Under the pieces are notes generated by a model. It was not told where the DNA came from, did not search any database, and saw only the letters and a list, made by a program, of their open reading frames with translations. From NCBI GenBank assembly GCA_026397955.1, contig JAPLTV010000014.1, positions 1 through 64,000 of the forward strand: a stretch of DNA of 64,000 nucleotides. The letters are read 5' to 3'. Positions 547-64,000 of this stretch are shown here, in pieces. The first letter of the stretch is position 1, and the number at the start of each line of letters is the position of its first letter. This stretch comes from Verrucomicrobiota bacterium. GTDB lineage: Bacteria > Verrucomicrobiota > Verrucomicrobiia > Opitutales > UBA953. A program made the translations under genes and the position numbers.

Positions 547-576
547 TTGCCAGCGTGCCAACCTGCCCCCTAGTTT
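547..576 (+). promoter_or_regulatory. putative promoter of tgt, possibly leaderless
   Basis: TTGCCA at 547-552, an 18-nt spacer and TAGTTT at 571-576. Transcription would start about 7 nt later, on the GTG start codon at 583. It belongs to the spacing pattern described in the findings. Confidence 0.4.
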
Positions 577-582
577 CCGACC

Positions 583-1725
583 GTGTTCACCCTGCTTAAG
601 ACCGATACGACGACGGCGGCGCGCCTCGGCGTCCTGAAGACCCCCCACGGGGAGATCCGTACGCCGGTCTTCATGCCGGTGGGCACCCAAGCCACGGTCA
701 AAGGCCTCTCGCCCCAGCAGGTAGCCGAGACGGGCGCCCAGATCCTGCTCAGCAATACCTACCACCTGAACCTCCGCCCGGGCCGCGAGATCGTCCGCGC
801 TGCCGGCGGTCTCCATAAGTTCATGCACTGGGATAAGCCGATCCTGACCGACAGCGGGGGCTTCCAGGTCTTCTCGCTGGCGAAGCTCCGCACGATCACC
901 GACGAGGGTATCCACTTCAGTTCCCACCTCGACGGCAACAAGCTGTTCCTCGACGTGAAGGACTGCTTCGACATCCAGGATGCGCTGGGCTCGGACATCG
1001 CCATGGTGCTCGACGAGTGTCCGCCCTACCCCTGCGAGCGCGCCGCGTGCGAAGTCGCGGTGAACCGCTCCATCCGCTGGGCCAAGGAGATGCTCCAGCT
1101 CGCCAAGGACAGCGGCTTCCTCGCCTCGGGTCGTCATCTCTTCTGCATCAATCAGGGCTCGGTCTACGATGACCTACGTATCCGTTGCGCCGAAGAACTG
1201 GGTGGACTCGATTTTCCCGGCCACGCCATCGGCGGCGTGAGCGTCGGCGAGCCCGAGGAGCACATGCTCCATCAGGTCGGCTTGGTCGCGCCGCTGCTGC
1301 CGAAGAACAAGCCGCGTTACGTCATGGGCGTCGGCACGCCTCCTCAGCTGCTGCGCATGGTCGCGCTCGGCGCTGACATGTTCGACTGCACGATGCCCAC
1401 CCGTATCGGTCGCCACGGCGGCGCGTTCACGCCCGACGGCCCGATCAGCGTGAAGCACCTACGCTACCGCGATGACCACCGCCCACTTGTGGAAGGCATG
1501 GACAACTACACCTGCCGCCATTTTTCGCGCGCTTACCTGCGTCACCTGCACCACGCCGGCGAACAGCTCGGCGGCACCTTGCTCGCGTTGCACAATATCC
1601 ACTTCCTGCAGGACCTCATGGCTCAGGCCCACGTGCACATCGCCGCAGGCGACTACGCATCGTGGTCCAAGGCTTGGTGCGAACGTTACGAAGCTGGCGC
1701 CAAGGACGAGATACCGGCGGACTGA
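583..1725 (+). CDS. tgt: queuine/preQ1 tRNA-guanine transglycosylase with altered zinc site
   Basis: The 380-residue protein has the usual family length. It exchanges guanine-34 of tRNAs for Asp, Asn, His and Tyr with preQ1 in queuosine synthesis. D90 (in DSGGFQVFSL) and D268 (in GADMFDCTMPTR) are the expected catalytic aspartates, and GGVSVGEP (217-224) is the base-binding loop. The loop keeps the bacterial valine, which suggests preQ1 use. The zinc motif is odd: the E. coli enzyme has three cysteines and a histidine, but here the first two cysteine positions are M306 and N308. Only C311 and H337 remain. The start is GTG and has no Shine-Dalgarno sequence. The function is clear; the structural consequence is not. 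Confidence 0.95.
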   Translation: MFTLLKTDTTTAARLGVLKTPHGEIRTPVFMPVGTQATVKGLSPQQVAETGAQILLSNTYHLNLRPGREIVRAAGGLHKFMHWDKPILTDSGGFQVFSLAKLRTITDEGIHFSSHLDGNKLFLDVKDCFDIQDALGSDIAMVLDECPPYPCERAACEVAVNRSIRWAKEMLQLAKDSGFLASGRHLFCINQGSVYDDLRIRCAEELGGLDFPGHAIGGVSVGEPEEHMLHQVGLVAPLLPKNKPRYVMGVGTPPQLLRMVALGADMFDCTMPTRIGRHGGAFTPDGPISVKHLRYRDDHRPLVEGMDNYTCRHFSRAYLRHLHHAGEQLGGTLLALHNIHFLQDLMAQAHVHIAAGDYASWSKAWCERYEAGAKDEIPAD

Positions 1726-1740
1726 AGACAGGAAATCAAA

Positions 1741-1803
1741 GGAGACCGGAAACCGGGAGGTTTGCTAGGGGTCTTCATCTCCCCTGCCAATCATCCGGTC
1801 TCC
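1741..1803. repeat. 10-bp inverted repeat downstream of tgt
   Basis: GGAGACCGGA at 1741-1750 and its exact reverse complement TCCGGTCTCC at 1794-1803 enclose 43 nt. There is no T-run on either side, so this is a hairpin-type intergenic repeat and not a clear terminator. Confidence 0.5.
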
Positions 1804-1823
1804 CTATGAGACCCCCTGCCTTG

Positions 1824-61758: not shown

Positions 61759-63489
61759 TCAGCCGAATCGGCGCGTCAGGTCGGCGTCCGTCCATTCGAC
61801 ATAGGTCCGTCGTCCACGCGGGCAGGTGCCTGGCTGCACGGTGCGGAACAACGCCTGCACGAGTTCCATCAGCTCGGCGTCCGAGAGGCTGTCGCCCTTA
61901 CGGCGGGCCTTGATGACGGCGATCTTGGCGAGGGCGTCGTAAGCCAACGAAGGACGGCCGAAGTCGCCTTCGCGACGGGCCATCTCGGCCAGCAGGTCAC
62001 GCACGAAGGCCAAGGCATCCTCGGGCTCGAGCCACGCAGGCAGAGCCTGGATGCGCCAGAAATTGCGGCCATACTCCTCGAAATCGAAACCGGCAGAAGC
62101 GAGTAGCGGCATACGTTCCTTGAGCACCGAGGCGGGTAAAGGATCGAGTTCGATGCTCAGAGGCACGAGCATCGGCTGGCTGACGGGCTTCTGCGCAGTG
62201 AATTGCGCGAGGATGGATTCGTAGAGCACGCGCTGGTGCGCGGCACCGATATCGAGGATCGCCAGACCGGTGGGCGTCTCGAAGACGGCACGTTCTTCGC
62301 GCAGACGCGAAAGCAGACGCCAGCCAAGGCGGACGGCCGGAGTATGAGATGACGCGGACGGAACGGCTGAAGGCGGTACGTAAGCCGGCGAAGTTGCGGT
62401 GGATGCGACCGGTGAGCTTAGCGTCGGTGCGATGGAAGCTGCCAGCGGTGTCGCCGGCGTGACCGAAGGAATCGTCGACACCGGCAGTCCGTCGTCGGCC
62501 CGGGCGCGTAGCACCGCGAGAACGGACTCGATCAGGAAGTTGCGGACCTTGGCTTCGTCGCGGAAGCGCACTTCGCGCTTGGCCGGATGGACGTTCACGT
62601 CGACCCAGGCCGGGTCCATCTCCAGGAACACGAACGCCAGCGGGTAGCGGCCCTTGGGGATCAGCGTGTGATAGCTCTCCGTCAGCGCGAAGGCCATCGT
62701 GCGACTATCCACTGGACGGCCGTTGACGACGGTCACCAGATCCTGACGGGTGCCGCGGCTGACGCCCGGCTTGCCCAGCAGACCGCTGAGACGCATGCCC
62801 GGACGCTCGAAGAGCGGCATGATCGTGACTTCCTCGGCCACCTGTCGGCCCCAGATCTCGCGGACGCGATCCAGGAGCGGAGCATTACCCGGCGAACGGA
62901 AGATCTCGCGGCCGTCTTCGCGCAGCAGGAAACCGACTTCCGGGTGGGCGATGGCGTAGAGGCGGACCAGGCGGACGATATGGGCGGCCTCGGTCTCGTC
63001 GGACTTCAGGAACTTGAGCCGAGCCGGGACCGGATGGAAAAGATTCGATACCTCGATGCGCGTGCCTGGCGCCATGCCATGGTCGCGGCGATGGACGAGC
63101 TTGCCGCCATTGATCGCAACCTCGGTGCCTGAGGGAGCAGAGGCGGGCCGGGTCTGCATCGTAAACCGGGCCACGCTGGCGATAGAAGGTAGTGCTTCGC
63201 CGCGGAAACCGAAGGTAGCGATACGGTCGAGGTCGGACGCTAGTTGAATCTTGCTGGTCGCATGGCGCTCGAGGCTCAACAGGGCTTCGTCGCCCGTCAT
63301 GCCTTTACCGTCATCCTCGACGATCATCTGGGCCTTGCCGCCGCGCGAAAAGTCGACCGTCACACGACGCGCATCGGCGTCGAGGGAGTTCTCCAGCAGC
63401 TCTTTGATGACCGCGGCAGGGCGCTCCACCACCTCGCCGGCGGCAATCTGGTTGGCCACCGTCGGCTCAAGGATGCGGATCGTTGACAT
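61759..63489 (-). CDS. mutL: DNA mismatch repair protein MutL
   Basis: The 576-residue protein couples MutS to downstream repair. The N-terminal GHKL ATPase (about 1-330) shows ELLENSLDA, DDGKGM, TFGFRGEALPSI and the ATP lid. A Pro/Ser/Ala-rich linker (about 335-385) precedes the C-terminal dimer domain. The nicking motif DQHAxxExxxxE reads DIGAAHQRVLYE (413-424): Q, H and the first E are replaced. The CPHGRP motif is CPRGRR. It therefore resembles endonuclease-free MutL, as in E. coli. No mutH is in the window. Confidence 0.95.
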   Translation of the reverse strand: MSTIRILEPTVANQIAAGEVVERPAAVIKELLENSLDADARRVTVDFSRGGKAQMIVEDDGKGMTGDEALLSLERHATSKIQLASDLDRIATFGFRGEALPSIASVARFTMQTRPASAPSGTEVAINGGKLVHRRDHGMAPGTRIEVSNLFHPVPARLKFLKSDETEAAHIVRLVRLYAIAHPEVGFLLREDGREIFRSPGNAPLLDRVREIWGRQVAEEVTIMPLFERPGMRLSGLLGKPGVSRGTRQDLVTVVNGRPVDSRTMAFALTESYHTLIPKGRYPLAFVFLEMDPAWVDVNVHPAKREVRFRDEAKVRNFLIESVLAVLRARADDGLPVSTIPSVTPATPLAASIAPTLSSPVASTATSPAYVPPSAVPSASSHTPAVRLGWRLLSRLREERAVFETPTGLAILDIGAAHQRVLYESILAQFTAQKPVSQPMLVPLSIELDPLPASVLKERMPLLASAGFDFEEYGRNFWRIQALPAWLEPEDALAFVRDLLAEMARREGDFGRPSLAYDALAKIAVIKARRKGDSLSDAELMELVQALFRTVQPGTCPRGRRTYVEWTDADLTRRFG

Positions 63490-63621
63490 GGTCAGGCAGG
63501 GCTAGCCGCGGACCGTCCGTAGGGACGACCGATGACGCGGCTGGGGCGGACGGAAGGCACCGGGAGACCTTTGCCCTTCACCCCCTCCCCTGCAAGTCGA
63601 ACGGCTCGGAAACGGTCTTTG

Positions 63622-63649
63622 TTGCACCCTGCCGAAGGATGCCAACCTT
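63622..63649 (+). promoter_or_regulatory. putative promoter of the DUF255 gene
   Basis: TTGCAC at 63622-63627, a 16-nt spacer and AACCTT at 63644-63649, then 6 nt to the GTG start. Confidence 0.35.
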
Positions 63650-63655
63650 CCAGAC

Positions 63656-64000
63656 GTGTCGAACCGACTGGCCCACGAAAGCTCGCTCTACCTCCGCCAA
63701 CACGAGGCCAACCCCGTGCATTGGTGGCCGTGGTGCGCCGAGGCGTTCGCCGAGGCCAAGGCGAAGGACAAGCCCGTGCTGGTCTCGGTCGGCTACTCCT
63801 CCTGCCACTGGTGCCACGTCATGGCCCGCGAATCCTTCGAGCAGTCGTGGATTGCCGACCTGATGAACCAGCACTTCGTCTGCATCAAGGTCGACCGGGA
63901 GGAACGTCCCGAGGTCGATAAGCTGATGATGGACGCTGTGCAGATGATCCAGGGCCACGGCGGCTGGCCGCTCAACTGCTTCTGCCTCCCCGACGGTCGC
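63656..64000 (+). CDS. thioredoxin-domain protein of the DUF255/YyaL family, N-terminal part
   Basis: The window ends after 115 codons of an open frame. The start matches the YyaL/SSP411 family: [29 protein letters not shown] opening, the thioredoxin-like [11 protein letters not shown] with a CxxC pair (C50, C53), [11 protein letters not shown], and [10 protein letters not shown]. In full-length members a large alpha/alpha-barrel like that of sugar epimerases follows; it lies outside the window. The substrate is not established. GTG at 63656 is the only start consistent with the family N-terminus. Confidence 0.9.

What the first reader, a model, noticed from the sequence alone, without database searches (positions are those of the whole stretch)
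547..63656. Recurrent TTGnnn hexamer 28-34 nt before start codons suggests widespread leaderless transcripts
Fifteen genes have a -35-like TTGnnn at an almost fixed distance from the start codon. The hexamer position and the number of bases between it and the start are: tgt 547 (30), Fe-S carrier 2350 (31, minus), corA 3111 (28), priA 6732 (29, minus), pheS 14235 (29, minus), metX 21905 (32, minus), the Fur-family gene 21925 (29), pgi 30317 (32), 33881 gene 33843 (32), 37034 gene 36995 (33), gmhB 37939 (28, minus), greA 43787 (34), ArsR-methyltransferase 45847 (29), lipoprotein 53136 (29), DUF255 63622 (28). In 11 of 15, T is at position -7 relative to the start codon, and in 8 A is at -11. 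This is the T/A pattern of a -10 box whose transcription start is the start codon itself. About 35 genes in the window have room for a promoter, and in such GC-rich DNA only a few would show TTG in that small range by chance. The hexamers and distances are read from the sequence; leaderless transcription is inferred.
Basis: partly seen in the sequence, partly recalled or inferred. Interest (0 to 1): 0.72.

Follow-up and report, generated by a model that had tools for sequence, protein, structure and literature searches.

The report
Leaderless promoters in freshwater Opitutales genus
Many first genes of transcripts in this lake bacterium carry a conserved promoter so close to the start codon that the messenger RNA probably begins at the start codon itself, a known but minority way to start translation, here in a lineage that shows no Shine-Dalgarno signal.

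Summary
Observation confirmed: all 15 hexamers, distances and starts read as stated; T at -7 in 11, A at -11 in 8. In the window alone the excess is modest; in 352 kb of the same genome outside it, with motif-blind gene starts, 63 of 182 transcription-unit-first genes have TTG starting at -40..-34 against 20.9 in shuffles (maximum 34), operon-internal genes 2 of 69. TTG peaks at -35/-34 and drops abruptly below -34, as expected if the start codon cannot precede +1. In relatives, 228 of 239 orthologous upstream regions keep TTG at -41..-33, against 14 of 272 for other first genes. A seeded model with free spacing gave a 16-18 nt spacer and a -10 box nAnnnT, mostly 6-8 nt before the start. Shine-Dalgarno words are not enriched in this genus but are in E. 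coli. Best reading: sigma-70 promoters giving leaderless or near-leaderless mRNAs at roughly a quarter to two fifths of first genes. The kind is known: 10% of Akkermansia start sites (same phylum) are leaderless (PMC4782308, passages). Start sites were not mapped here.

The parts
547..582 (+). promoter block of tgt: TTGCCA, 18 nt, TAGTTT, 6 nt, GTG start at 583
   Evidence: TTG within 2 nt in 84% of 19 divergent orthologs; at -12..-7 TAGTTT in 9 and TAnnnT in 12 of 19; 3 of the 19 have an unrelated upstream
2319..2355 (-). promoter block of Fe-S carrier gene (TTGTCT), ATG start at 2318
   Evidence: TTG conserved in 95% of 22
3111..3144 (+). promoter block of corA (TTGACA), ATG start at 3145
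   Evidence: 88% of 8; my motif-blind caller placed the start at 3178, the four orthologs printed support 3145
6703..6737 (-). promoter block of priA (CTTGAAT), GTG start at 6702
   Evidence: TTG in 20 of 20, at -34..-37
14206..14240 (-). promoter block of pheS (GCTTTCGCTTGCCG), ATG start at 14205
   Evidence: 83% of 48
21873..21910 (-). promoter block of metX-like alpha/beta hydrolase gene, ATG start at 21872; divergent to the Fur-family gene
   Evidence: 93% of 15, but the region as a whole is conserved (7 of 32 background trimers as conserved)
21925..21959 (+). promoter block of Fur-family gene, ATG start at 21960; two neighbouring TTG (-38 and -35)
   Evidence: TTG at -35 in 100% of 15, the -38 one in 40%; 14 of 32 background trimers as conserved
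30317..30354 (+). promoter block of pgi (TTGCCA; a further TTG 3 nt upstream), GTG start at 30355
   Evidence: TTG at -38 in 92% of 24
33843..33880 (+). promoter block of unnamed 203-aa gene (TTGACC), ATG start at 33881
   Evidence: 6 of 6
36995..37033 (+). promoter block of unnamed 90-aa gene (TTGACT), ATG start at 37034
   Evidence: TTG in 3 of 3 orthologs (too few for the ranking test)
37911..37944 (-). promoter block of gmhB-like HAD gene (CTTGCGA), ATG start at 37910
   Evidence: 8 of 8, but 15 of 32 background trimers are as conserved
43787..43826 (+). promoter block of GreA/GreB-domain gene (CTTGCAA), ATG start at 43827; longest distance (34)
   Evidence: 24 of 24 at exactly -40; 9 of 32 background trimers as conserved
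45847..45881 (+). promoter block of ArsR-methyltransferase gene (TTTTGACA), ATG start at 45882
   Evidence: TTG in 93% of 27; A at -11 in 24 and T at -7 in 19 of 27
53136..53170 (+). possible promoter block of a 48-codon ORF (53171)
   Evidence: only; no Pfam hit, no ortholog passing the filters: unverified
63622..63655 (+). promoter block of DUF255 (Thioredox_DsbH) gene, GTG start at 63656, gene runs off the window
   Evidence: no ortholog upstream passing the filters

Best explanation
The hexamers are -35 elements (CTTG[C/A]C) of ordinary sigma-70 (RpoD) promoters. They are followed after 16-18 nt by a -10 element of form nAnnnT that ends 6-8 nt (up to about 11 nt) before the start codon. 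RNA polymerase would then start on, or a few nucleotides before, the A or G of the ATG/GTG, so the mRNA has no or almost no leader. Such mRNAs would be read by ribosomes that recognise the 5'-terminal start codon (established for leaderless mRNAs elsewhere; inferred here). Operon-internal genes lack the element and lie within 25 nt of, or overlap, the gene before. Shown: the promoter-like elements, their near-fixed distance, their conservation, and the absence of Shine-Dalgarno enrichment. Inferred: the exact start site and the mode of translation.
For: Outside-window replication with motif-blind starts: 63 of 182 first genes versus 20.9 expected (max 34); TTG together with AnnnT 20 versus 2.4 (max 9); operon-internal 2 of 69 and 0 of 69. 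Sharp edge: mean TTG count per position among 216 first genes (window included) is 18.0 at -35/-34, 8.7 at -41..-36, 3.8 at -55..-42, 2.7 at -140..-56 and 2.4 at -33..-20. Conservation: 12 of the 31 window first genes that have at least 4 divergent orthologs carry a TTG kept in 83-100% of them, mean 0.94 against 0.49 for other trimers of the same regions, combined p 1.7e-4; over 13 genes 228 of 239 ortholog upstreams have it, against 14 of 272 for other first genes and 18 of 189 for operon-internal genes. EM seeded with TTG and a mild TAnnnT, spacer and offset free, gave spacer 16-18 and A2/T6; scored on genes outside the window, 14 of 141 lead and 7 of 41 short-gap genes pass, versus 0.7 and 0.6 in shuffles and 0 of 69 operon-internal. 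RpoD regions 2.3-2.4 are 32 of 33 and 4.2 are 25 of 31 identical to E. coli. Controls: E. coli TTG 13 of 112 versus 13.9 and SD 40 versus 10.4; Thermus pTT27 TAnnnT 13 of 91 versus 2.1.
Against: No transcription start data for this organism. T at -7 is only 35-38% in lead genes against 27-28% in operon-internal genes, so the -10 box alone is weak. C at -1 (63%), which would suit a Y-R start site, is nearly as common (56%) before operon-internal genes and so proves nothing. The PWM passes only 14 of 141 lead genes outside the window; it also passes 1 of 19 operon-internal genes of the window, 3 of 67 lead and 2 of 6 short-gap genes in G029, which uses SD, and only 1 of 76 in Thermus. The TTG signal is absent in G010+G045, same order (8 of 73 versus 7.0). 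In the 78-98% PheS-identity loci operon-internal genes have TTG in 6 of 66 versus 3.0 (max 7). In five of 12 footprints 5 to 15 of 32 background trimers are as conserved as the TTG. In Thermus the operon-internal genes also show TAnnnT (8 of 86 versus 1.1), so that class is not a clean negative there.
Confidence: 0.86

Rival explanations
1. Ordinary leadered genes: the TTG boxes are real -35 elements, but transcription starts some 5-15 nt upstream of the start codon, giving short leaders without SD, with translation aided by lack of structure or by ribosomal protein S1.
For: TTG is also in excess at -41..-36 (8.7 per position) and slightly at -55..-42 (3.8); greA (-40 in 24 of 24) and pgi (window -38, with a second TTG at -41) would leave a few leader bases.
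Against: The highest peak and the sharp edge are at -35/-34, which with a 17-nt spacer puts +1 on the start codon; a TAnnnT ends exactly 6 nt before the tgt start in the window and in 12 of 19 orthologs.
Confidence: 0.1
2. The TTG is a translational or mRNA element rather than a promoter.
For: It is nearly fixed relative to the start codon.
Against: Operon-internal genes, which also need translation, lack it (2 of 69; 0.50 per position at -41..-34 versus 0.58 background); it goes with A/T at sigma-70 spacing.
Confidence: 0.02
3. Chance plus selective reading by the first reader in AT-richer intergenic DNA.
For: In the window alone the best shuffle reached 12 against 11 observed.
Confidence: 0.01

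Closest known systems
Leaderless transcripts of Akkermansia muciniphila (Cappable-seq, PMC4782308, passages read)
   Same: Same phylum; 10% of mapped start sites lie at the start of annotated genes.
   Different: Another order of the phylum (recalled); experimental. The one genome of group f4 sampled here (G021, possibly Akkermansia-like, not named) shows no TTG excess (12 of 103 versus 12.7) and only weak TAnnnT (8 versus 5.1, max 12).
TA-led genes of bacteria (Zheng et al. 2011, PMC3160421, passages read)
   Same: -10-like TANNNT about 12 bp upstream of the start, read as leaderless, tested against dinucleotide shuffles.
   Different: That method used 20 bp upstream in bacteria, too short to reach a -35; the words Verrucomicrobia, Opitutus and Akkermansia do not occur in its main text.
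-10 motif next to ORFs in Deinococcus-Thermus (PMC12340547, passages read)
   Same: Sigma-70 -10 box directly before the ORF, leaderless mRNA, about 30% of ORFs.
   Different: There the -10 is the main element. In my Thermus control TAnnnT is enriched (13 versus 2.1) and TTG is not (10 versus 8.8); here TTG is the stronger signal (63 versus 20.9; TAnnnT 14 versus 5.5, max 13).
SD-scarce Verrucomicrobia with intact CCUCC (PMC10783764, passages and section 19 read)
   Same: [quoted passage not shown] this genus also shows no SD enrichment.
   Different: In the passages read it proposes no leaderless promoters for them; the 16S 3' end of this genus could not be found here.

Membership tests
Leaderless (TA-led) bacterial genes | -10-like box about 7-13 nt before the start codon, above dinucleotide shuffles | tested here: met
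   TAnnnT at -14..-11: 14 of 182 versus 5.5 (max 13) outside the window; 17 of 133 versus 2.8 (max 8) in loci L018-L040
Leaderless (TA-led) bacterial genes | no Shine-Dalgarno before these genes | tested here: met
   SD words at -16..-8 in first genes: 11 of 182 versus 18.1 expected
Leaderless (TA-led) bacterial genes | mapped transcription start within about 5 nt of the start codon | not testable with these tools
   no RNA data held
Leaderless (TA-led) bacterial genes | ribosomes translate the mRNA from its 5'-terminal start codon | not testable with these tools
   needs ribosome profiling or a reporter
Sigma-70 (RpoD) promoter | TTGACA-like and TATAAT-like hexamers 16-18 nt apart | tested here: met
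   seeded EM on 13 genes and their orthologs: TTG[C/A]C..., spacer 16/17/18 at 0.36/0.40/0.17, -10 A2 68% and T6 82%; a preference for T1 was not found (21%)
Sigma-70 (RpoD) promoter | genome encodes an RpoD with standard -10 and -35 reading residues | tested here: met
   Q437, T440, R584, E585, R588, Q589 all conserved (roles and numbers recalled); R99 and M102 of region 1.2 differ
SD-led genes | GGAG/GAGG/AGGA/AAGG at -16..-8 above shuffles | tested here: not met
   first genes 11 of 182 versus 18.1, operon-internal 8 of 69 versus 5.9 (max 14), while E. coli, G006 and G029 are positive
SD-scarce bacteria with intact anti-SD | CCUCC at the 16S 3' end | tested here: inconclusive
   no 16S 3' end found in this genome or in the genomes of its order that were searched; one draft of the order (G077) gave a partial 5' match

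The most novel reading that the evidence does not exclude
This freshwater Opitutales genus has given up Shine-Dalgarno initiation: first genes of transcripts are largely started as leaderless or near-leaderless mRNAs from promoters marked mainly by the -35 box, and downstream genes by coupling at overlapping or very close junctions. The trait would have grown within the order from a weaker leaderless habit of the phylum.
Probability: 0.35. Interest if true: 0.65.

Novelty: new member of a known kind. Interest (0 to 1): 0.5.

Why it matters
Leaderless initiation as a substantial gene-start mode is best known from Actinobacteria and Deinococcus-Thermus. A conserved case in an uncultured lake lineage without SD signals widens the range, gives a way to correct gene starts in genomes of this genus (the -35 box marks the start codon, as at corA), and adds a clade in which the link between loss of SD and gain of leaderless mRNAs can be tested against SD-using relatives in the same phylum.

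Tried and rejected
Signal as a translational element: rejected because operon-internal genes lack it. An unusual sigma factor: RpoD regions 2.3-2.4 and 4.2 are standard. C at -1 as a start-site mark: rejected, nearly as common in operon-internal genes. Finding the 16S 3' end to test the anti-SD: none found in the genomes of the order searched, only a partial 5' match in G077, while other members of the class gave matches; whether it is missing from assemblies, lost by the search or withheld I cannot tell. An earlier count said too broadly that no 16S was found; entry 3 corrects it. Ribosomal protein S21 is present in 12 of 12 genomes asked; not pursued. Trait across the whole order: not supported; G018 18 of 100 versus 10.0 (max 18), G080 19 of 77 versus 9.3 (max 17), G010+G045 8 of 73 versus 7.0 (max 15). 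Other Opitutia loci: GC-rich 9 of 89 versus 9.0, GC-poor 28 of 145 versus 19.7 (max 29); a set of Spartobacteria and other Verrucomicrobiota 22 of 86 versus 10.3 (max 20), an unexplained hint; Saccharibacillus 3 of 19 versus 2.0. My PWM does not recognise the Thermus control (1 of 76), so it is lineage-specific.
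Full report
What the window is. The window is bases 1-64000 of a 137-kb contig of a 2.45-Mb draft genome (93.6% complete). 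Its PheS is 95-99% identical to that of 13 loci (L005-L017) titled Opitutae, Opitutia, Opitutus or Verrucomicrobia, including the records Opitutae bacterium BS6 and BS10; one of them (96%) is titled Akkermansia muciniphila, probably a mislabelled MAG. It is therefore a Verrucomicrobiota genome of the Opitutales kind; GC of the 416-kb sample 0.64.

Checking the observation. A script re-read all 15 sites. Hexamers, distances and starts are right in 15 of 15; T at -7 in 11, A at -11 in 8. Pfam supports tgt, the Fe-S carrier, corA, priA, pheS, the Fur family, pgi, an ArsR-type regulator fused to a methyltransferase, DUF255, a HAD hydrolase for 'gmhB', an alpha/beta hydrolase for 'metX', and a GreA/GreB domain pair at the end of a 655-aa protein; three of the 15 (33881, 37034, 53171) have no Pfam hit.

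Chance. I called genes by codon usage only, with starts chosen without looking upstream (332 genes in 416 kb), and split them into transcription-unit-first genes (upstream neighbour on the other strand, or gap of at least 26 nt) and operon-internal genes (gap of 25 nt or less). Twenty-eight genes at stretch ends were left out of the counts. In the window, 11 of 34 first genes have TTG at -40..-34 against 3.6 in shuffles, yet the best of 200 shuffles reached 12. The window alone is thus suggestive, not decisive. Decoy in-frame starts downstream of lead genes: 19 of 356.

The edge. Among 216 first genes of the sample (window included) TTG occurs 23 times at -35 and 13 times at -34, then 4, 0, 3, 1 times at -33 to -30. 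Upstream it falls gradually towards background. This is the shape expected when the start codon must lie at or after +1: a promoter may not sit closer than about 34 nt, and leader lengths decay from zero.

The -10 box. EM on 13 window genes and their orthologs, seeded with TTG and a mild TAnnnT, with the spacer free between 15 and 20 and the offset free between 2 and 11, gave a spacer of 16-18 (0.93 of the weight), a -35 consensus GCTTG(C/A)CA, a -10 consensus nAnnnT (A2 68%, T6 82%, no preference for T1 although T1 was seeded) and 6-8 nt before the start (0.71 of the weight). The model was then scored on genes outside the window: 14 of 141 lead genes and 7 of 41 short-gap genes above threshold, against 0.7 and 0.6 in shuffles and 0 of 69 operon-internal. 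TTG with AnnnT at the right place occurs in 20 of 182 against 2.4, maximum 9.

Conservation. Orthologous upstream regions came from relatives of at least 60% protein identity (loci; identical upstreams removed; start codon allowed within 4 codons of the aligned one). Of 31 window first genes with at least 4 divergent orthologs, 12 have a TTG conserved in 83-100% of them; of 12 operon-internal genes with as many orthologs, none has a TTG at -42..-33. The mean is 0.94 against 0.49 for other trimers of the same regions (combined p 1.7e-4). The distance moves by one to a few nt between species while the box stays: priA has it at -34 to -37 in 20 of 20. At tgt a TAnnnT is kept at -12..-7 in 12 of 19 orthologs (TAGTTT in 9) while the spacer and the last 6 bases change; three (L232, L235, L238) have an unrelated upstream without the box. 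At the ArsR-methyltransferase gene A-11 stays in 24 and T-7 in 19 of 27.

Translation signals. SD words before genes are not enriched in this genus, neither in first genes (11 of 182 versus 18.1; in syntenic stretches of 8 genus members, which are orthologs of the window and so not independent, 19 of 191 versus 22.7) nor in operon-internal genes (8 of 69 versus 5.9; 10 of 88 versus 10.1). The same test is positive in E. coli (40 of 112 versus 10.4) and in two more distant genomes of the phylum (G006 22 of 69 versus 9.3; G029 22 of 73 versus 7.3). Of 88 operon-internal genes, 25 have the 4-nt NTGA overlap, which fits coupling. RpoD regions 2.3-2.4 and 4.2 are standard.

How far it reaches. The signal is strong in the genus (63 of 191 versus 19.3 in the syntenic stretches) and in 23 loci of 78-98% PheS identity (L018-L040: TTG 37 of 133 versus 13.5, TAnnnT 17 versus 2.8). 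That set overlaps the genus: contig lengths of L018 and L021 equal those of G059:C15 and G063:C12. It is weaker in two other genomes of the order (G018, G080), absent in G010+G045, and absent or within the range of shuffles in the rest of the class and phylum sampled (G021, G042, G036, G006, G029), except for a hint in a Spartobacteria-rich set (22 of 86 versus 10.3, max 20). My motif-blind starts are noisy and dilute all these numbers, so negatives are soft.

What is known. Cappable-seq found 10% of start sites of Akkermansia muciniphila to be leaderless (PMC4782308, passages). Zheng et al. described TA-led genes across bacteria (PMC3160421, passages); Deinococcus-Thermus uses a -10 motif next to about 30% of ORFs (PMC12340547, passages). 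Verrucomicrobia bacterium IMCC26134 and Akkermansia are listed as SD-scarce with intact anti-SD (PMC10783764, passages and section 19). Nakagawa et al. 2017 (PMC5397173, passages) does not contain the word Verrucomicrobia. Searches 'leaderless'+'Verrucomicrobia', 'Opitutus'+'leaderless' and 'Verrucomicrobiota'+'transcription start sites'+'promoter' listed, judged by titles, abstract starts and the passages named above, no paper reporting leaderless genes in Opitutales; the library holds only open-licence papers.

Verdict. It is a new member of a known kind, with a -35-weighted signal and no SD enrichment as its notable traits.

Noticed in passing
window 21873-21959: The 87 bp between metX and the Fur-family gene hold two back-to-back promoters whose -35 boxes lie side by side around a conserved AGTGGCCATTCG-like core; the spacer is largely conserved, perhaps an operator.
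   Followed up: partly
window 14664-14746: The gap before rplT (L20) contains a strongly conserved AAGGCGACCCC stretch and mostly ends in ACCAAC before the ATG in relatives; possibly a ribosomal-protein leader.
   Followed up: no
window 17496-17505: The called start at 17505 is preceded in frame by an ATG 9 nt upstream in all relatives printed, probably the true start.
   Followed up: no
window 44570-44656, minus strand: ARAGORN calls a tRNA-Glu (ctc) inside the GreA-domain gene on the opposite strand; probably a false positive.
   Followed up: no
window 43827-45794: The GreA/GreB domains sit at the end of a 655-aa protein with a long N-terminal part that has no Pfam match, found in 30 of 31 genus genomes searched, the own genome included.
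   Followed up: no
G000:C86:2582-2794 and G000:C114:288-500: Two contigs of the genome carry a sigma-70 region 2 with the same score: a duplicate rpoD or an assembly or binning artefact.
   Followed up: no
L001 (RpoD): RpoD region 1.2 is only 17 of 32 identical to E. coli and differs at R99 and M102, residues that I recall as contacting the discriminator, the very stretch between -10 and start codon here.
   Followed up: no
genomes of the same order (G001, G010, G018, G039, G045, G048, G080 and others): No full 16S rRNA was found, even in the single-contig genomes G018 and G080; only a partial 5' match in G077; other members of the class gave hits.
   Followed up: partly
L073-L080, L083: A set of Spartobacteria and other Verrucomicrobiota loci shows a TTG excess at -40..-34 (22 of 86 versus 10.3, max 20), a hint that the trait may occur elsewhere in the phylum.
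   Followed up: no
L232, L235, L238: In three relatives tgt has a quite different upstream region without the TTG box, so the promoter was replaced there.
   Followed up: no
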